The notes under the pieces were generated by a model. That model saw only the letters and a list, made by a program, of their open reading frames with translations. It made no database searches and had not been told where the DNA came from. The translations under genes were made by a program, and so were the position numbers. Source: Coriobacteriaceae bacterium EMTCatB1 (GTDB lineage: Bacteria; Actinomycetota; Coriobacteriia; Anaerosomatales; Anaerosomataceae). Taken from it: a stretch of DNA of 64,000 bases. This document shows, one piece after another, positions 221-8,862 of this stretch (its first letter is position 1; the number at the start of each line of letters is the position of its first letter). The stretch lies in the NCBI GenBank assembly GCA_001950395.1, contig BDLO01000001.1:781979-845978 (forward strand), in the 5' to 3' direction.

Positions 221-574
221 TTAGAGCTGCGACAAGACCCGCTGCGCTCCCTTGCCGCCACGACGGAACGACGTGATGGAGACCATCACCTGCTCCCCGC
301 CTGCCTCGCCTTTCAGCAACACATAGTCGCTTCGACCCAGGTCTGCAGCATCACCGACAGGAAGCCACAACGGCACATGCCAGTAGCGGACCCACCTGCC
401 GGACCAACCCTCGGGCACGGTCAGCGTGACGCCGGAGTCCATGACCAGCGACTGTCCGGCTGAGAGCACCTTCTCGGCGCGGACGCCCGACCACCCGCCC
501 AGCCAAACGTTCGCCCCCACGAGCAGGGCCACAACGGCCGCAGCTAGACCGACCCGCATGACCCACGCCCTCAT
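221..574 (-). CDS. small membrane-anchored protein, possible immunity protein of the orphan Rhs tip
   Basis: This 117-residue protein has one hydrophobic segment at about residues 7-27 (VGLAAAVVALLVGANVWLGG) and then a short soluble domain. It looks like a signal anchor with an extracytoplasmic tail. The ATG at 574 is preceded by GGGAGG at good spacing, so the start is firm. It lies 35 bp downstream of the displaced Rhs C-terminal cassette. In Rhs and WapA systems the gene directly after each toxin tip usually encodes its immunity protein, so that role is proposed by position only. I recognise no family. Confidence 0.6.
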   Translation of the reverse strand: MRAWVMRVGLAAAVVALLVGANVWLGGWSGVRAEKVLSAGQSLVMDSGVTLTVPEGWSGRWVRYWHVPLWLPVGDAADLGRSDYVLLKGEAGGEQVMVSITSFRRGGKGAQRVLSQL

Positions 575-609: not shown

Positions 610-1143
610 TCAGTATGCCACGGAGACACCAAGCACACACAGCTTCCCTGCTTCCTTCACGACCCAACGTTTGTACTCGGGAGCATGGTTCCGAATCGTC
701 CAGACCCGCGTCTCGTCCGGCACGGAATCAAAGGGCAGGTTCCAGCCTCGCGAGTATGTGGAAGCGATCGACTGCAGTTCCAGGTAGTACCTCAGCGTCC
801 CTGGGTCCTGCAGCACATAGGCCTTCCAAATCGCTCTGGCCCTGACCCTCCAGTTGCGCTTCAGATACCGCACGGCTGCGATAAGCCGGTAGGCATCCCT
901 GTAGTCCATGGCTTTGAACGCTGCCTTCGATACCCCGAGAAACCGGTCGTACCAACGATACAGGGTATCTAGCGGAATGCTGCAGAACCACGCCCATAAC
1001 GACTTGTTCCCGCTCGGATCCACCTTCCCCACCGGGTCGCCTCCGCAGTACTGGTACGGGCTCTCTTCGCCGTCTGCCTTGGCGGGGTCCTTGGTGAGGC
1101 GAGCCCCCTGCGGAATCGCAGCAGCGTCCAGCGCACCTGCCCC
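610..1143 (-). CDS. orphan Rhs C-terminal cassette (core end plus variable tip), no N-terminal part
   Basis: The frame is open from just after a TGA at 1144-1146 down to the stop at 610. It begins with about 14 unrelated residues, then LTKDP, then the Rhs core end with GGDPVGKVDPSG, and then a tip of about 135 residues rich in W, Y, R and K that I do not recognise. The core end matches the end of the large Rhs gene, but the upstream Rhs barrel is absent. The only in-frame start is a GTG inside the core motif (1030-1032) and it has no clear ribosome site. This is the layout of the orphan rhs-CT cassettes known downstream of full-length rhs genes, which are thought to be silent toxin tips that recombine into the main gene. 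Activity is unproven. Confidence 0.7.
   Translation of the reverse strand, partial: GAGALDAAAIPQGARLTKDPAKADGEESPYQYCGGDPVGKVDPSGNKSLWAWFCSIPLDTLYRWYDRFLGVSKAAFKAMDYRDAYRLIAAVRYLKRNWRVRARAIWKAYVLQDPGTLRYYLELQSIASTYSRGWNLPFDSVPDETRVWTIRNHAPEYKRWVVKEAGKLCVLGVSVAY
1009..1095. repeat. 87-bp Rhs core-end repeat, copy in the orphan cassette
   Basis: This stretch matches 2334-2420 of the full-length Rhs gene in the same orientation with about four mismatches. It encodes the conserved peptide from LTKDP to DPSG. Identity stops sharply at both ends, so it is a short homology block that could allow exchange of toxin tips. Confidence 0.85.
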
Positions 1144-1150
1144 TCACCGC

Positions 1151-1825
1151 TTACGGCGTCGGGTTCTCGATCAGCGTCGTGATCCGGCCGCCCTGGACGA
1201 CGAGGCGTGCCCCCGCGAAGGCGAGCGAGGCGCGGCGCGGCTCGTCCCGCGCGTACTCGGCTGCGAACTCCTCCGTTGTGAGCGCGCCAAGCGCGGCGGC
1301 AGACGGGCGGCCGAAGCTCGGGACGGTCTCCGGCGGGTACCACAGGACAACGACCGCATCCTCGGCGAAGGGGAGCTCGAGCCTCGCGGCGTCGCGGTTC
1401 CGGACGTACACGCCCTCGTCCTCGTTGAGCCGGCGCCCGTCGCGGGCGGCCGCTGCTGCCGCGCCCGCTCCCGTGTAGTACTCGACCGGGTCGGCCACCA
1501 CTGCGTTCGAGCCGGGATCGACCGACAGGACGAGCGCGAAGAAGCTGCCATCGGAGCACCCGCGCGCGTCGCCTTCGGAGCACGCGGCGTCTCCGAGAAG
1601 CGCGAGGTCTTGAAGCGCCCGCCCGAGCAGGGAGGCGCGGTCCGGTCGGGCCTCCTGCGCCTGGCCGGCGCCGGCGTCGTCTGCCAGCCGCCCGTCGGTC
1701 CTCTCCTGCGTGGAGCAGCCCGCGCAGCCGACCGTCAAGACGCACGAGACGACGAGCACGAACGCCACGCACGACAAGGCCCGCCGCCTGTTTGCGGGAG
1801 AGTAACCATCCGCCACCTCAAGCAC
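1151..1825 (-). CDS. exported protein, possible immunity protein for the NlpC/P60 tip
   Basis: This 224-residue protein begins at GTG 1825, two bases before the end of the Rhs stop codon, with a run of G residues as ribosome site; an in-frame GTG three codons later is an alternative. The N-terminus has an arginine cluster, a hydrophobic stretch and a cysteine-rich site (LTVGCAGC), which suggests a secreted or lipid-anchored protein, although the lipobox is not ideal. The rest is acidic and I recognise no family. It sits directly after the toxin tip of the WapA/Rhs gene, the usual immunity position. An exported inhibitor would fit a tip that acts on the cell wall. The role is inferred from context. 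Confidence 0.65.
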   Translation of the reverse strand: MLEVADGYSPANRRRALSCVAFVLVVSCVLTVGCAGCSTQERTDGRLADDAGAGQAQEARPDRASLLGRALQDLALLGDAACSEGDARGCSDGSFFALVLSVDPGSNAVVADPVEYYTGAGAAAAAARDGRRLNEDEGVYVRNRDAARLELPFAEDAVVVLWYPPETVPSFGRPSAAALGALTTEEFAAEYARDEPRRASLAFAGARLVVQGGRITTLIENPTP

Positions 1826-1829
1826 CCCC

Positions 1830-4800
1830 CTATCGAATCACGTTGTGCGCGACCTTGATGAAGAATCGCAGACTCTCTTGAGGTTTCCATGTCCTGAGGC
1901 GCGCGTTGAGCCTGTGCTTCGTGGGGCCTCTGTAACGGGGTGAGGACTCCGCTATCCATGGATCTGGCCCATCGGAGACCACGATTGCAACATGGCCGAA
2001 CCGCCTCCCCGGAGCCCACAAGATGTCTCCGACCTGATACGGCATCCCCCTGCTTCTGTCAAAGTAGCGCACGCTCGGCTGTCCTTTTCGAGGCGCCATG
2101 CTGCGGATTCTACCAGTGTTCCAGCCGTGCAACGCGGCATGTGGGAAGAGCCCTGCCCGAATCATGACGAACGTCACGAGGCCAGAGCAGTCGATGAAGC
2201 CGTCCGGATTCTTGTAGCCGGGCTCGGGCCCGTATCCCTTGGCGTGACGCAAGACATAGTCGACCGCGCCGAGAATCCTCGCTCTCACGGTGAGCCAAGC
2301 AGAGGTGCTCAGCAGCGCCATGCGCATGGCCTCCCCGCTCGGATCCACCTTGCCCACCGGGTCGCCTCCGCAGTACTGGTACGGGCTTTCCTCGCCGTCT
2401 GCCTTGGCGGGGTCCTTGGTCAGGAACTGCGCGGTGGCCGGGTCGTAGTACCGCTTCGACAGGTAGTACAGGCCCGAGTGCGCGTCGTAGGCGCAGCCCG
2501 CGTAGCGGAGCACGTTCGCGCGCGCGATCGCCTCTGCGAGCGGAGCGGAGATGCGCGCGGTTGCGGCCGTGCTCACCTGCCCGGGGTTGCCGTAGGCGTC
2601 GTAGGAATACAGCGCGAACGGCGCGCCGGAAGAATCGAGGAGCTCGGCCACATCGCCGCGCGCGGTCGTGGCGATGAAGAAGGCCACGGGCGCAGCGGCC
2701 GCGCTGCCTTCGTAGATGCCGGCGAGAGGCGCGCCTGCCGCGTCGTAGAGGTAGGCCACGCTCTCGGTCGTGCCGTCGCTCCTTACGGTCGTCGCGTAAA
2801 GCAGCGAAAGCCCGTCGTAGGCGTAGGTGGTGGTCGTGACGAGCGAGCCTGAGGCCGCCACCGAGCGCAGGCGCTGGCCGTAGGCGTCATACGCATAGCT
2901 CGCAGACACGCCCCGAGAGGCGTCGGAGCAGCCGACAAGCCGGTCCGCGTCGTCGTAGGCGAAGCGGACGGCCTGCGGCGAAGCGGGCGTCCCTTGCGAA
3001 GCGCGCCTGCCGCGGCTGTCGAAGGAAAAGACCGTCTGCGTCGCGCCTTGCGAGACGAGCGCCGCGATGCGGCCCGAGCCTTGCTCGTAGGCAAGCGTCG
3101 CCGTCGGCTCTGCGCCGCGCTTGATGCCGATGAGGTTGCCCGTGCCGGGCTCGTAGGCGTACGAGACGTCCGGCATGCCAGAGATCGACGCGAAGGCGAG
3201 CCTGCCGTCTGCCGTGTAGGCGTAGCTGCGCACGCTGTCGGTGCGCCCGCCGAACGCGAACCGGTACGCCTCGGCCTCGAGCCTGCCCGTGTTGGCGTTG
3301 TAGGAAAGCTCGGCGCCGGGCACGGGAAGGCCGGCCGCGTACCCGTAGCCGGACTCAGAAGAAAGCCGGCCCGCCTGGTCGAAGACGCGCGTCTTGGACC
3401 CGGCGCTTCCCGCGTCGATCGCGCACGGGCGGCCCGCCGCGTCGAAGTCGCCGAAGGACAGGGAAAGGACGCCTGCCGGCGTGGAGGCGACGCGCGACGC
3501 TTCGCGGCCTGCGCCGTCGTAGGCCACCTCCACGCTCACGCCCGCGTAGGAGACCGTCATCGTCGTCGTGGGCGAGCCGGACTCCGGGTACGTGGTGCGG
3601 CTCCATCTGACGGCGCCGCTCACCAGGTCCGTCACGGTCGTCTCGATCGGACGCGACAGCTCGTCGTACGCGCGGCTCGTACGCTTGAGCACCACACCCG
3701 AGGAGCTCTCCTGGGTCTCCTGCACCACGCGCCCGAACGCGTCATGGACGTACCGCGCGGCAGTGCCGTCGGCCTGCCGGGTGAAGACGGCGTTGCCGAG
3801 CGCGTCGTACGCGGTCGTCGACGCCTTGCCGCCGACCGACTCTTCGAGCACGCGCCCGCACGCATCGTACGTCCATGTCTTGACGATGCCGTCGGAATCG
3901 GTCTCAGAGAGCTTCCAGCCCACCGTGTTGTACACGATGACCGTCGGGGTCGCGCCTTCCGAGGCCGCCGAGACCTGCCGTCCGGCCAAGTCGTAGCAGA
4001 ACGTCGTGGTGGCGCCGTCACTCGATGTCTCCGCGATCTTCCGGCCGCCTACATCGTAGCCGAAGGACGTGTCCGTCGTGCCGCCATCTTCGGTCGGCTT
4101 GGTCTCCTTCAGCGTGTTGCCCGCCTGGTCGTAGACGTACTCCGTCCAGCTGCCGTCCGGGTTCGTGACCCTCTTGACCAGGCTGTTCGGGTAGTAGGTG
4201 GTCAGCGTCGCGGAGGTCTCGGCGCCTGGCGCGAGCTCGCGGCACACGCGACCATACGCATCGTACTCCGTGCGCGCGGCTGCCGTGAGCGATGACGTGT
4301 CCGAACCTTCCGGCCACGTCACGGTGGCGTTGCCGCGCGCGTCGTAGCGGGTCAGCGCATAGTCGGCCACCTTGCTGTCGTCGCTCGAGATCTCCCTGCC
4401 CATCTGGTCGTAGGAGTGCGTGACCGTGGCCGCTGCGGACGGCTGGCCGGCGGTATCGGCCAGGTATCTGGTCTCTGTCAGCACGCGCCCTTCGGCGTCG
4501 TACGTCTTCGCGGTCCGGTCGCACCACGAGCCGTCGCGCGCCTGACGCCATGAGAGCGTCTCGTTGCCGAGCAGATCGTACTCGTGATGCGTGACCGTGC
4601 CTGTGGCGTCTTTCGTTTCGAGCACGCGGCCAGCGATGTCGTAGGTGCTGGTCTCGACTTCGGATCCGCATGCGTCAACGCGCTTCACGACATTGCCGAA
4701 CGCATCGTAGAAGGTGTGTTCTATGAGGTCGATGGGCTCTCCGCCCGGCGACAGCCGAACGCTTTTGCGGGTGGTGGTCTGCGCCTGGCCGCACGGGGCG

Positions 4801-7800
4801 AAATCCGAGTACTCTGTCACAGCCCACTCGCTCGCGTTCAGCCGCTGCCGCTCGAGGACGACGGTGCCCGATGCGTTGTACGAGTACTCCACCCGCGAGC
4901 GGTCCGTGCCGGTAAGCTGCTTCTCCTCGGCGATTAGCGGGCCTGCGCCTTCGAAGCCCGTCGACGCGTAGGTACGGTAGGTCGTGCAGCCGCGCGGGTC
5001 GACCTCGCGCACGCACCTGTCGAGCGCGTCGTAGACGTACACGGTGCGGTGGCCTTCTTCGTCGACCTCCTCGATGACGTTGCCGCGTCCGTCGACCGTC
5101 CGCGAGACCTTGGCGCCAGTCGGCGAGAGCTCCTGGACGGCCTCGTTGGCGGCGTTGTACGCGTAGGTCCACGTCGCGGGGGCCGCCCCTTGCTTGTACG
5201 GGTCGGTCTTGGACGCCGTCGTGCCGGTGGGGTTCCACGTATAGGACTGCAGCACGGCGGTGCCTGGCGTGCCCTCGACGGTGCCGAAGCGCGTGATGGT
5301 CGCGCTCGCGCCGGAGTACGCGACGTCGATGCGGCGCAGGCTGTCGGACGCGTACCCGGGAAGCCTGAGGCTGGCGAGCCTGCCGTCGCCGCCGTAGGTG
5401 ACGCTCCACGACGCGGCCACGCCGCCCGGCGCGTAGCCCTCGATGGAGGCCTGGGCCAGCCGGTCGGCAGAGTGCGCAAGGACCGTGGTGCGGGCCGCGT
5501 CGCTCCCGGCGTACGCGGTCACCGCGACCACGCCCCCGCCGCGGTCGGCGTACTCGACGGCGCGCGTGCCGGCCGCGGTGGCATACGTCGCGGACTGCAC
5601 GTGGCCGTCGGCGTCGAAGGAGACCACGATCCTTTGGCCGTTGGCGGCGGTGATCGCAAGCGTCCCTGCGCTGCGCTCATAGGTCACGGCGTTGCCCGCC
5701 TGGTCGTAGTCGGCGAGAAGGCGTCCGGAAGCATCGAAGACGCTCGAGCTCCTGTCGCGCTGGATGAGCCGGTAGCGCAAAGCGCCGCCTACGGTCTCGG
5801 TCGCAAGCCTGGCGTAGCTCCCGTTCGGCGCGTGGTAGACGCCGCCTGCGAGCACGAAGCGGTCGCGCTGCCCGGTCTCGTCGACGTAGGTGACGCTCGT
5901 CGAGGTGATCTCGAGCGCGCGCTCGAAGCTGAAGCGCCACCCCAGAGCGCCATGGAGGAGCGAGGGCGCCGTCGAAGAGGAGCAGTAGCTCCTGGCGATG
6001 CGCGCGGCAGGACCCCATGAGGCGATCTCGAGGTCGGTCGCATCGAGCCTGAGCGCGCCCCTGTCGAGCTCGACTGCCGCGTCCATGAAAGCCACGTCGG
6101 GAAGCTCGGCGGTGGTGTGGCGGGCCTGGTCGGCGACGCGCACCGTGCGGTTGTCGAGGGTAGGCATGTAGGCCGTGCAGTCGAATACGTCGGGCTGTCC
6201 GTAGTCGTTGAACGGGACGATCCTGAACCAGTAGTTCGTATTGTCGTAGTAGTTCGGGATCGAACTCTTGCGATACAGCGGCCGCGGGTCATCGCGCAGA
6301 TCAAGCCCAGGGCCGAGGTAGCGCCGAACCTCGCCTCTGTCCAAAGAGCCGAGCCAGAAGCAGTCGTTGGCCGGGTCGTAGCACCCGTTGATGACGCGGG
6401 TCGTGGCCTGGTTGATGGGCCACTGGTTCGCGATGCGGAAATCCGACAGACGCACCTTGGTCACGTGCGCGGAATCGGTGCTCGCCCACTGGACCAGGTA
6501 CAAGGCAGAGCCGTCGCACAGTACGCCATCGATGTACTCGGACGGCACGGCGATGGTGCGGTCAGCGCCTTGCTTGACGCCGTCCGTGCCGAACACGCGG
6601 ATCGTGTAGCCGTTGTACGTCGAGCCGCCGATGCCGTAGGCGACGTTGTAGATGTACTTCCCGTCGGTCGTGACCAGCACGTCGCTCGACGCACCGGCAA
6701 GCTCCGCGCCGGTGTCCCGGTCGAGCAGCGGCGCGGAGAACGTGATCGTTCTCGACCGGTCCCCGCCTTCTGGCGCGTCCTTCCAGATGCCGCGGATGGC
6801 GTCCTTGGCGACAGCCGCACCGCTGAACAGGAACCCGTCGAGGTAGAACGCGGAGTACGACGATTGCGCGGAGAGATCCGGACCGACCGTGCCGTAGTCC
6901 TTGCCGGCCACGGTCCCGTGGAATCCCGTGCCGACGCGCTTCCACGCAGCGGACCCAGGATAGGTCCCCCACCGCCGCACGAACAGATAGGTGCCGTCCG
7001 TGACCACCAGGCCGGCCCCGCTTTGTCCCTCCACCGTCACGGTGGCGACCTGCGACATCGCTCTGGGGCTCGCGGCACGCGTAAGCGCGTTCCGCGCCGC
7101 CGGCGACCACCCTGCGATCTCAGAGTCTGTCGGGTAGATCCCGCATCCTTGGCTCGTCCACGTCGTGGCGTTCGAGCCGAGAGTGGTGCCGACCTTCTCG
7201 TAAGAGTCCCCGTCCCACTGGTAGATGTTGTATCCCTCAGCGCGCGGGGCGGCAGGCCACGCGAGCTTCACGCCACCGCGGCCTGCGCGCGGAAGGTCGT
7301 TTGGCGTATCCGATATGCCGTCGCCATTGCGATCGACCTCGCGGAACCATTCGTACGCCTCGTGCGTGCACGCCGAGACGTCGGTGACCGGGTCGGGGAT
7401 GACGGTGTAGGTCACGACGAGCTTCGGGCGGAGCGCGCTGTCCGAGTACTCGCGCGAGTAGAACTTCCTCCAGTGCGTCGTGTTCTCGGTCCCGTCCTCT
7501 TTCTGGTAGCACATGAACCCATAGTTCGAGGACGAGTTTGCGACCCAGCCCTGCACCGTCGTCTTGACAGCGGTCTGGGACCAGTTCACCCACACGCCGC
7601 GTCCGGCTATGGACTGGCTGGCGAGGTACGAATACGACGGCTTCGTGTTCCACGTGGTCGCCGTGCCCCATGAGCTGGTGGCCTTCGCGAGGTAGGTCGT
7701 GGTCGCGGTGTTCGTGTAGTAGGTGTGGAACTGGTAGATCGAGAACGTGGCGGAATCGACCCGCGCGATCGACGGGATGGCGGAGAGGTCGAATTTCACG

Positions 7801-8777
7801 AGGGTGCGGTTGTGGCCCGTCGTCGAATCGTAGTAGCCGCACTTGAGCTCGGTGGACGAGTTGTAGTTCGTCGCGGGGTAGGCGCTGGCCACATACGTGT
7901 CGAGCGCAGAGATTGCCGTCAGGCTCGGGTCGATCATCACCGGGAACCGGCGGGACGGCTCGGCGAGCCACTTCTCCGGGACCGTGTACGTGACGTACGC
8001 GCCGCCGTCGACCGGCTCGACCGTCATCGTGGCGTCGGAGCAGTACGCCGGGTCGCCTGCGGCGTTGCGGCTCGAGTCGAACACGCACAGGCCGCCCAGG
8101 CCGAAGACGGGCGCGCCCGTTTCGGGGTCGACGAGCACCCAGCCGCCCGAGCCGTCCTCGCGCACGGAAAGCCCGCCCGCATCGACGAAGAACCGGTAGG
8201 AGCTGGCCGCCTTCGGGGAGGACAGCACGATCGTCTGCTTCATCCCGTCGTCCTGCGCCTCGTAGACGAGGCTCGCTTCCGCCGTTACTCCCACGTAGCA
8301 GGCATGCGAACCCAATGCGAGCGGGCGGCCTTCCGCGGCACCGAGCATGTTCAGGCCCACCGTGCGCCCTGACGCGCTCACCCGCACCGGCGGGCCGCCA
8401 GCGGAGTCGGCGCCGAACGAGCACACCGCTGGCGCCGACTTCGTGCGGACCCTGCCTGTGGCGGGATCGCCCACGAGCGTCGTGTCGATCTCGACCCAGG
8501 CTCCGGACACGTCCCGGTAGTGGACCGGCGCCTCGGAGATCACCGCCCCGATGCGGCCGTCGGGCAGCCGGTACTGCTTGGCGTTCCTCGTGCGAAGCGA
8601 GACATCCTCGACCGCCCCCGGCGGCAGCCCGTCAGGGCTCGCGGCAGCGACGCCGTCTGCCGCGTCTTCCGCGTGCGCGGTCGACGGGAATGCTCCGAGC
8701 ACAGGCGTCGTCGCAAGAGTGAACGCGAGCAGGAAAGAGACGAAGCGTGCGGACCGAGCGCGGATGAACGATCGCAT
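1830..8777 (-). CDS. wapA: secreted WapA/Rhs-type polymorphic toxin with C-terminal NlpC/P60 domain
   Basis: The 2315-residue protein starts at ATG 8777 behind GGAGGGGGAGGGG. It has a signal peptide (cleavage likely after AHA, residue 36), a DNRLRE-like module at about 286-460 (typical of Gram-positive WapA proteins), an FN3-like part with a DRNGDGISDT calcium-type motif near 480, and dozens of YD/RHS repeats at about 950-2090. The conserved core end, DPVGKVDPSG, lies near 2147. The last 168 residues form an NlpC/P60 papain-like domain with DCSG (Cys2197) and GHVAIVV (His2262), a fold that usually cuts peptidoglycan stem peptides. Rhs proteins cage and deliver such tips in contact-dependent competition. 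The target here is inferred. Stop codon is TAG. Confidence 0.92.
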   Translation of the reverse strand: MRSFIRARSARFVSFLLAFTLATTPVLGAFPSTAHAEDAADGVAAASPDGLPPGAVEDVSLRTRNAKQYRLPDGRIGAVISEAPVHYRDVSGAWVEIDTTLVGDPATGRVRTKSAPAVCSFGADSAGGPPVRVSASGRTVGLNMLGAAEGRPLALGSHACYVGVTAEASLVYEAQDDGMKQTIVLSSPKAASSYRFFVDAGGLSVREDGSGGWVLVDPETGAPVFGLGGLCVFDSSRNAAGDPAYCSDATMTVEPVDGGAYVTYTVPEKWLAEPSRRFPVMIDPSLTAISALDTYVASAYPATNYNSSTELKCGYYDSTTGHNRTLVKFDLSAIPSIARVDSATFSIYQFHTYYTNTATTTYLAKATSSWGTATTWNTKPSYSYLASQSIAGRGVWVNWSQTAVKTTVQGWVANSSSNYGFMCYQKEDGTENTTHWRKFYSREYSDSALRPKLVVTYTVIPDPVTDVSACTHEAYEWFREVDRNGDGISDTPNDLPRAGRGGVKLAWPAAPRAEGYNIYQWDGDSYEKVGTTLGSNATTWTSQGCGIYPTDSEIAGWSPAARNALTRAASPRAMSQVATVTVEGQSGAGLVVTDGTYLFVRRWGTYPGSAAWKRVGTGFHGTVAGKDYGTVGPDLSAQSSYSAFYLDGFLFSGAAVAKDAIRGIWKDAPEGGDRSRTITFSAPLLDRDTGAELAGASSDVLVTTDGKYIYNVAYGIGGSTYNGYTIRVFGTDGVKQGADRTIAVPSEYIDGVLCDGSALYLVQWASTDSAHVTKVRLSDFRIANQWPINQATTRVINGCYDPANDCFWLGSLDRGEVRRYLGPGLDLRDDPRPLYRKSSIPNYYDNTNYWFRIVPFNDYGQPDVFDCTAYMPTLDNRTVRVADQARHTTAELPDVAFMDAAVELDRGALRLDATDLEIASWGPAARIARSYCSSSTAPSLLHGALGWRFSFERALEITSTSVTYVDETGQRDRFVLAGGVYHAPNGSYARLATETVGGALRYRLIQRDRSSSVFDASGRLLADYDQAGNAVTYERSAGTLAITAANGQRIVVSFDADGHVQSATYATAAGTRAVEYADRGGGVVAVTAYAGSDAARTTVLAHSADRLAQASIEGYAPGGVAASWSVTYGGDGRLASLRLPGYASDSLRRIDVAYSGASATITRFGTVEGTPGTAVLQSYTWNPTGTTASKTDPYKQGAAPATWTYAYNAANEAVQELSPTGAKVSRTVDGRGNVIEEVDEEGHRTVYVYDALDRCVREVDPRGCTTYRTYASTGFEGAGPLIAEEKQLTGTDRSRVEYSYNASGTVVLERQRLNASEWAVTEYSDFAPCGQAQTTTRKSVRLSPGGEPIDLIEHTFYDAFGNVVKRVDACGSEVETSTYDIAGRVLETKDATGTVTHHEYDLLGNETLSWRQARDGSWCDRTAKTYDAEGRVLTETRYLADTAGQPSAAATVTHSYDQMGREISSDDSKVADYALTRYDARGNATVTWPEGSDTSSLTAAARTEYDAYGRVCRELAPGAETSATLTTYYPNSLVKRVTNPDGSWTEYVYDQAGNTLKETKPTEDGGTTDTSFGYDVGGRKIAETSSDGATTTFCYDLAGRQVSAASEGATPTVIVYNTVGWKLSETDSDGIVKTWTYDACGRVLEESVGGKASTTAYDALGNAVFTRQADGTAARYVHDAFGRVVQETQESSSGVVLKRTSRAYDELSRPIETTVTDLVSGAVRWSRTTYPESGSPTTTMTVSYAGVSVEVAYDGAGREASRVASTPAGVLSLSFGDFDAAGRPCAIDAGSAGSKTRVFDQAGRLSSESGYGYAAGLPVPGAELSYNANTGRLEAEAYRFAFGGRTDSVRSYAYTADGRLAFASISGMPDVSYAYEPGTGNLIGIKRGAEPTATLAYEQGSGRIAALVSQGATQTVFSFDSRGRRASQGTPASPQAVRFAYDDADRLVGCSDASRGVSASYAYDAYGQRLRSVAASGSLVTTTTYAYDGLSLLYATTVRSDGTTESVAYLYDAAGAPLAGIYEGSAAAAPVAFFIATTARGDVAELLDSSGAPFALYSYDAYGNPGQVSTAATARISAPLAEAIARANVLRYAGCAYDAHSGLYYLSKRYYDPATAQFLTKDPAKADGEESPYQYCGGDPVGKVDPSGEAMRMALLSTSAWLTVRARILGAVDYVLRHAKGYGPEPGYKNPDGFIDCSGLVTFVMIRAGLFPHAALHGWNTGRIRSMAPRKGQPSVRYFDRSRGMPYQVGDILWAPGRRFGHVAIVVSDGPDPWIAESSPRYRGPTKHRLNARLRTWKPQESLRFFIKVAHNVIR
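2334..2420. repeat. 87-bp Rhs core-end repeat, copy in the main gene
   Basis: This is the partner of 1009-1095. It codes for the last conserved part of the Rhs core immediately before the variable NlpC/P60 tip, which is where tip switching occurs in other Rhs loci. Confidence 0.85.
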
Positions 8778-8796
8778 GGGACCCCTCCCCCTCCGG

Positions 8797-8832
8797 TGCA
8801 GTGCCTGACAGGACCCCCGGCCTGTCACTGCA
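8797..8832 (-). promoter_or_regulatory. interrupted inverted repeat in the wapA leader
   Basis: TGCAGT and GACAGG pair with CCTGTC and ACTGCA, with a 4-base bulge and a GC-rich loop of 8 bases. It lies between the proposed promoter and the ribosome site of the Rhs gene. It could be an operator or a leader hairpin. No regulator is identified. Confidence 0.4.
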
Positions 8833-8833
8833 G

Positions 8834-8862
8834 AGGGAACCACGGGGGGGTGGAGGTGTCAA
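8834..8862 (-). promoter_or_regulatory. candidate promoter of wapA with a G7 tract in the spacer
   Basis: A perfect -35 TTGACA (8857-8862, minus strand) is followed 17 bases later by a poor -10, TTCCCT (8834-8839). The spacer holds seven G on the plus strand (8844-8850). The weak -10 means it may need an activator or may not be the true site. Confidence 0.35.

What the first reader, a model, noticed from the sequence alone, without database searches (positions are those of the whole stretch)
1151..2340. WapA protein with an NlpC/P60 tip followed by an exported neighbour
The tip keeps the catalytic Cys (DCSG) and His (GHVAIVV), so it is probably an active wall peptidase. The next gene encodes a secreted or lipid-anchored protein of unknown family, which is the expected site of action for an inhibitor of an extracellular wall hydrolase.
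Basis: partly seen in the sequence, partly recalled or inferred. Interest (0 to 1): 0.6.

Follow-up and report, generated by a model that had tools for sequence, protein, structure and literature searches.

The report
WapA wall-hydrolase tip with lipoprotein partner
A subsurface actinobacterium carries a giant surface toxin whose interchangeable tip looks like a cell-wall-cutting enzyme, followed by a lipoprotein that probably protects the cell from it, and behind them a row of eleven spare tip-plus-protector sets; this is a well-preserved example of a known kind of bacterial weapon.

Summary
Window 8843-1830 (-) encodes a 2337-aa DNRLRE/RHS (WapA-type) protein. Its last 167 residues form an NlpC/P60-superfamily tip, closest to CHAP, with conserved Cys, His and Glu. 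An exported, probably lipid-anchored 224-aa protein starts 4 nt (or 13 nt) after the stop.

Downstream lie 11 displaced cassettes, each a fragment of wapA core end, a new tip and a small gene. In 11 of 12 cassettes that gene scores as exported or membrane-bound.

Tip relatives occur in four genera of the order, each time followed at once by a lipoprotein. A relative of this particular lipoprotein sits beside the tip in two other genera, one with a degraded tip. In a sister species one tip was replaced by a new tip plus new membrane gene while the old partner gene was kept, which is how immunity genes behave.

Best reading: a polymorphic WapA toxin with a wall-peptidase tip and surface-anchored immunity lipoprotein. 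Contact, inhibition and toxicity are untested; both structure models were unusable. The lipoprotein is a branch of a broader exported family found without tips, and exported partners are also common for other actinobacterial Rhs proteins. New member of a known kind.

The parts
1830..8843 (-). Full-length wapA/rhs gene, 2337 aa; Sec signal probably from the internal ATG at 8774 (MRSFIRARSARFVSFLLAFTLATTPVLGAFPSTAHA, read by eye)
   Evidence: DNRLRE E 5e-34, RHS/YD repeats, Rhs_assc_core E 2e-19
1833..2333 (-). C-terminal tip, 167 aa, NlpC/P60-CHAP superfamily
2187..2189 (-). Codon of predicted nucleophile Cys2219 (DCSG)
1992..1994 (-). Codon of predicted His2284 (GHVAIV)
1947..1949 (-). Codon of conserved Glu2299 (IAES), likely third catalytic residue of CHAP type
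   Evidence: the role is inferred
1151..1825 (-). Candidate immunity lipoprotein, 224 aa (221 aa from the second GTG at 1816)
1009..1101 (-). Core-end fragment of the first displaced cassette (C1), 97% identical to the wapA core end over 31 aa
613..1008 (-). Displaced tip of C1, 132 aa, no Pfam match
   Evidence: (ORF 610-1032)
221..574 (-). Exported/N-anchored neighbour of C1, 117 aa; ten more cassettes follow outside the window, down to about genome 767.7 kb

Best explanation
This is a polymorphic toxin system of WapA/Rhs type. WapA is exported by its signal peptide and displayed on the cell surface. Its C-terminal tip is a cysteine peptidase of the NlpC/P60-CHAP kind that cuts peptidoglycan of a neighbouring cell. 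The lipoprotein encoded directly behind it is anchored on the outer face of the membrane of the producer and its kin, and binds and blocks the tip there. The 11 cassettes downstream are former or spare tips with their own immunity genes; each starts with a stretch of wapA core end through which recombination can put it onto the full-length gene. Shown by sequence: the gene order, the superfamily and conserved residues, the export signals, the pairing in other genera, the cassette structure and one natural tip replacement with the old partner gene kept. Inferred: wall cleavage, toxicity, lipid anchoring, binding and inhibition, and recombination as the route.
For: Tip class and residues. Tip family: in 69 genomes of the order it is found in 5 genomes of 4 genera; the copies lie at the end of an Rhs protein (own, G085, G095) or at a contig edge that cuts the tip or the core (G055, G003), and each is followed by a lipoprotein starting at +4/+13 (own), +10 (G055), -1 (G085) and -1 nt (G095). 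Pair conservation: in G055 the tip (40% identity) and the partner homologue (30%, E 1e-8) are adjacent; in G022 the partner homologue follows a degraded tip end that scores 24.5 bits against 9.4 for the best of 2000 shuffles. Array: 16 core-end sites in the genome, 12 in this array counting the full-length gene; core stretches of the displaced cassettes 76-1204 bp long and 82-96% identical to wapA (ten of eleven measured; C1 lay outside the piece searched). Partner genes exported/membrane in 11 of 12. Tip and partner travel together: 7 of 47 homologous tip pairs also have homologous partners, against 5 of 1606 other pairs (pairs are not independent). Natural replacement in G003 at the last cassette: homology breaks at the core end and resumes at the tip's stop codon; between lie a new tip and a new membrane gene, and the old partner is kept.
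Against: The CHAP match is below Pfam's cut-off and no confident fold was obtained. The partner shares a domain with exported proteins that have no tip nearby, and one close copy in G055 also has none. The partners in G085 and G095 were not found by the window partner's profile, so the partner is not constant across the tip family. The G003 copy of the pair is a 3084-bp contig 100% identical to the window and is not independent. The lipobox is not of the strict form. Exported partners also follow 15 of 23 scored Rhs tips elsewhere in the phylum, so localisation alone is weak evidence.
Confidence: 0.75

Rival explanations
1. The tip is a housekeeping wall enzyme that lets WapA pass or anchor in the producer's own wall, and the lipoprotein is its regulator or anchor; no antagonism.
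For: NlpC/P60 and CHAP enzymes are common in cell separation (established knowledge); the partner belongs to a wider exported family without tips.
Against: The tip is one of many unrelated tips on the same core, is absent from two of four genomes of the genus (G005 and G089), and sister species carry other tips at the same kind of site. A housekeeping enzyme would be conserved.
Confidence: 0.1
2. The lipoprotein is an accessory for export or folding of the tip, not an inhibitor.
For: Tight coupling (gap -1 to +13 nt) fits either; accessory proteins of Rhs effectors are known (search listing of PMC4524185).
Against: In G003 an old partner gene persists without its tip and in G055 a close partner copy stands alone. 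A tip-specific export helper would be useless without the tip; an immunity gene would not.
Confidence: 0.1
3. Co-location is coincidental; the lipoprotein is an ordinary gene.
For: Broader exported family exists without tips.
Against: Adjacency to the tip or its remnant in three genera and the cassette pattern of the array.
Confidence: 0.04

Closest known systems
Bacillus subtilis / Streptococcus suis WapA polymorphic toxins
   Same: Sec-exported Gram-positive Rhs protein with variable C-terminal toxin, adjacent immunity gene and truncated downstream duplications (passages of PMC12704120).
   Different: Those described in the passages seen are tRNases or other toxins tested in the cytoplasm; here the tip is of a wall-peptidase superfamily and its partner is exported; 11 displaced cassettes.
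Tox-NLPC/P60 of polymorphic toxins (Zhang et al. 2012)
   Same: NlpC/P60-clade toxin domain on RHS proteins, predicted to degrade target walls (passages of PMC3482391).
   Different: The table passage lists Bacteroidetes and deltaproteobacteria, T6SS/PVC/TcdB-TcaC delivery and no immunity protein; here Coriobacteriia, Sec-exported WapA, CHAP-like Cys-His-Glu, and a lipoprotein partner.
Imm65 lipoprotein immunity and exported immunity of L,D-peptidase toxins
   Same: Extracytoplasmic immunity; Imm65 was the only lipoprotein immunity in that collection (section read).
   Different: Imm65 pairs with Tox-JAB-1; the window partner matches no Pfam or NCBIfam family.
Orphan cdiA-CT/cdiI and rhs arrays
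   Same: Displaced toxin ends that keep a stretch of core homology, each followed by an immunity gene (passages of PMC3150448).
   Different: Proteobacterial contact-inhibition systems.
Vibrio cholerae T6SS immunity arrays
   Same: Effector replaced by a new effector-immunity module while the old immunity gene stays (abstract of PMC5361080), the same pattern as in G003.
   Different: T6SS effectors, Gram-negative.

Membership tests
WapA/Rhs polymorphic toxin | RHS/YD repeats ending in a conserved Rhs-associated core, then a variable tip | tested here: met
   (RHS repeats, Rhs_assc_core); tips differ after DPSG
WapA/Rhs polymorphic toxin | Small partner gene directly downstream of the tip, varying with it | tested here: met
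WapA/Rhs polymorphic toxin | Displaced toxin cassettes with core homology | tested here: met
WapA/Rhs polymorphic toxin | Toxicity of tip and neutralisation by partner | not testable with these tools
   needs expression assays
NlpC/P60-CHAP peptidase superfamily | Family profile match | tested here: inconclusive
   Window tip CHAP 23.2 bits vs cut-off 26; G095 relative NLPC_P60 22.8 vs 23; profile to PDB NlpC/P60 E 1e-3
NlpC/P60-CHAP peptidase superfamily | Catalytic Cys and His with a third polar residue | tested here: met
NlpC/P60-CHAP peptidase superfamily | Papain-like fold | tested here: inconclusive
   model pLDDT 38
Lipoprotein | Signal peptide with lipobox Cys | tested here: inconclusive
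   Heuristic positive but the -3 residue is Thr in TVGC; G055, G022, G085 and G095 partners have VAGC, VSGC, VASC, AAAC
Imm65 | Sequence membership | not tested
   No Pfam hit of the partner was reported, but Imm65's presence in the library was not checked

The most novel reading that the evidence does not exclude
In this lineage WapA tips mostly do not enter the target's cytoplasm at all: they are wall cutters, L,D-transpeptidase-like enzymes, phospholipase-like enzymes and hydrophobic membrane-active peptides that work from outside, each matched by a surface lipoprotein or membrane immunity protein. The array would then be a store of outside-acting toxins, and the question of how a Gram-positive WapA tip crosses the target membrane would not arise for them.
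Probability: 0.35. Interest if true: 0.65.

Novelty: new member of a known kind. Interest (0 to 1): 0.45.

Why it matters
It gives a well-bounded toxin/immunity pair with a clear predicted target (peptidoglycan) in Coriobacteriia, where a search of the held papers for Rhs, Coriobacteriia and immunity protein together found none. Lipoprotein immunity was reported once in the 2012 survey. The 12-cassette array, with a visible tip swap between sister species, lets tip exchange and retention of old immunity be studied in an actinobacterial lineage.

Tried and rejected
Structure prediction of the tip alone (pLDDT 38) and of the partner with one relative (pLDDT 46): too poor, so no fold search was made. 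Profile comparison of the tip with the clear CHAP tip of G005 found nothing, so these are not shown to be one subfamily. The tip profile found no relative in viral contigs. PDB search with the broad exported family gave nothing convincing. Promoter and terminator scans of the array were at chance level. The idea that exported partners are special to this family was tested and weakened: 48 of 58 scored cassettes of the family against 15 of 23 scored elsewhere in the phylum, p 0.08 under the same longest-ORF rule (29 control loci examined, 6 dropped: 5 without an ORF under the rule, 1 with an open tip; 60 family tips examined, 2 dropped). The orphan gene at genome 782065-781481 and the second G055 lipoprotein looked related to partner genes by eye but gave no match.

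Topology calls are my own hydropathy and lipobox heuristic, not a trained predictor. It called one partner cytosolic (L106 1394-1795) that looks like a membrane protein by eye; I left it as called.

Full report
WHAT IS THERE. The window is genome position 781979-845978 of a 1.84-Mb single-contig genome. A contig of the same family in a named collection is titled Anaerosomatales bacterium (L124; contig length 20494, equal to that of G025's contig C5), so the organism is most likely in Anaerosomatales, class Coriobacteriia. On the minus strand, 8843-1830 encodes a 2337-aa protein with a DNRLRE domain, RHS/YD repeats and an Rhs-associated core, i.e. a WapA-type protein. After the core end (..GDPVGKVDPSG) come 167 residues of tip, then, 4 nt after the stop, a 224-aa ORF with an N-terminal signal.

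THE TIP. Pfam gives CHAP at E 1e-4, under its cut-off. A profile of the four known tips finds NlpC/P60 endopeptidase structures (8idc E 1e-3 and four weaker), and two of the relatives match NLPC_P60 or endolysin-like models weakly. His and Glu are invariant in all four, and Cys is present in the three that cover it. The Cys-His-Glu order is that of CHAP enzymes (recalled, not from a call). The tip family is narrow: 5 of 69 genomes of the order, 4 of 40 genera, and no genome other than the own one and its sister among 296 sampled across the phylum.

THE PARTNER. It matches no Pfam or NCBIfam family. With single-sequence and profile searches of 246 genomes of the class it has five strong loci: the window, an identical contig in G003, G055 (C60), G022 and G055 (C21). 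The first three lie directly behind the tip, the fourth behind a degraded tip end (24.5 bits; best of 2000 shuffles 9.4), the fifth behind an unrelated gene. Sixteen weaker relatives have no tip or core end nearby. Profile comparison ties the partner's central 70 residues to a family of single-anchor exported proteins (probability 88%, E 3e-6). So the partner looks like a branch of a general extracytoplasmic family taken into the toxin locus. In the more distant tip carriers G085 and G095 the gene behind the tip is again a lipoprotein, overlapping the stop by 1 nt, but of another sequence (not found by the partner profile).

THE ARRAY. The core end occurs 16 times in the genome. Twelve belong to this locus: the full-length gene and eleven displaced cassettes running to about 767.7 kb, where pyrR, pyrB and pyrC begin (names recognised by eye from the translations). 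Each cassette has a stretch of core (76-1204 bp, 82-96% identical, ten of eleven measured), a different tip, and a small gene. My heuristic calls that gene exported or membrane in 11 of 12, the exception being the 255-aa gene behind the tip at genome 776759. Among 36 long window genes it is 17. In the family as a whole, 64 core ends gave 60 tips of 60 aa or more and 58 scored partners, 51 of them exported or membrane; these include near-copies in sister species. A phylum control under a simpler rule gave 15 of 23, against 48 of 58 for the family and 10 of 12 for the own array under that rule. The bias is therefore strong here but not special to this family.

TIP VARIETY. Of 57 tips scanned, three match CHAP, two NLPC_P60, two Zn-dependent phospholipase C, two Ntox44, one YkuD and one DUF6973 (E up to 0.05; some matches are below Pfam's cut-offs, and one tip can match two families). 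The G005 tip is a clear CHAP domain (E 6e-12) followed by a lipoprotein, the G022 tip a YkuD domain followed by a lipoprotein, and two phospholipase-like tips of G025 are followed by five- and six-helix membrane proteins. The displaced tips of the own array (10 of 11, the eleventh) match nothing above a cut-off.

CASSETTE BEHAVIOUR. Homologous tips tend to have homologous partners: 7 of 47 tip pairs against 5 of 1606 others. Of the seven, three are between species of the own genus, one lies within the own genome and three are between genera. The clearest case is a comparison of G000 and G003 at the last cassette: 94% identity up to the core end, then no similarity, then 90% identity from the tip's stop codon on. 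In between G003 has a new 127-aa tip and a new membrane gene, and it still has the old partner gene. This is the displacement pattern described for T6SS immunity arrays (abstract of PMC5361080).

HOW IT PROBABLY WORKS. The surface WapA presents a wall-cutting tip to neighbours; the lipoprotein shields the producer. Everything after 'exported' is inference. The rivals (own-wall enzyme, export helper, coincidence) are weaker because the tip is not conserved in the genus and old partner genes outlive their tips.

COMPARISON. Wall-acting NlpC/P60 toxins and exported immunity were foreseen in the 2012 survey, which also states that nearly all immunity proteins known then were cytoplasmic and only one a lipoprotein. 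Displaced cassettes are known from CDI/Rhs systems and from S. suis WapA. The system is therefore a new member of a known kind, with an uncatalogued partner family.

Noticed in passing
L020 4343-6559 (genome about 740-743 kb) and L021 7082-9159 (about 1.339-1.341 Mb): Two further Rhs loci in the same genome with a different core end; their tips start with an AI..D leader (related tips in the family read AVVDVDGDG, EF-hand-like in two of 57 scanned), contain glycine-rich hydrophobic stretches, and are followed by membrane genes.
   Followed up: partly
L055 (G003:C5, 3084 bp): A sister-species contig 100% identical to the window's pair and next cassette, although other parts of the array differ by 3-11%: recent transfer, or a contig binned into the wrong genome.
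   Followed up: partly
L092 100-1800: The G003 array appears interrupted by a transposase-like gene inside the copy of the cassette at genome 773716 (the tip diverges from its G000 copy after about 85 residues).
   Followed up: no
L105 6304-5305 (G022): Displaced Rhs tip with a YkuD L,D-transpeptidase domain followed by a lipoprotein: a second kind of wall-acting tip with a surface partner.
   Followed up: partly
L104 7703-10425 (G025): Two Rhs tips resembling zinc-dependent phospholipase C, followed by five- and six-helix membrane proteins.
   Followed up: partly
L053 4476-5916 (G043): Two tandem exported proteins of the broad family related to the partner (motif LTGxxAxxAA..YYIxNxNxKLR in the first), no tip found in the locus; the first has no significant Pfam match.
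   Followed up: partly
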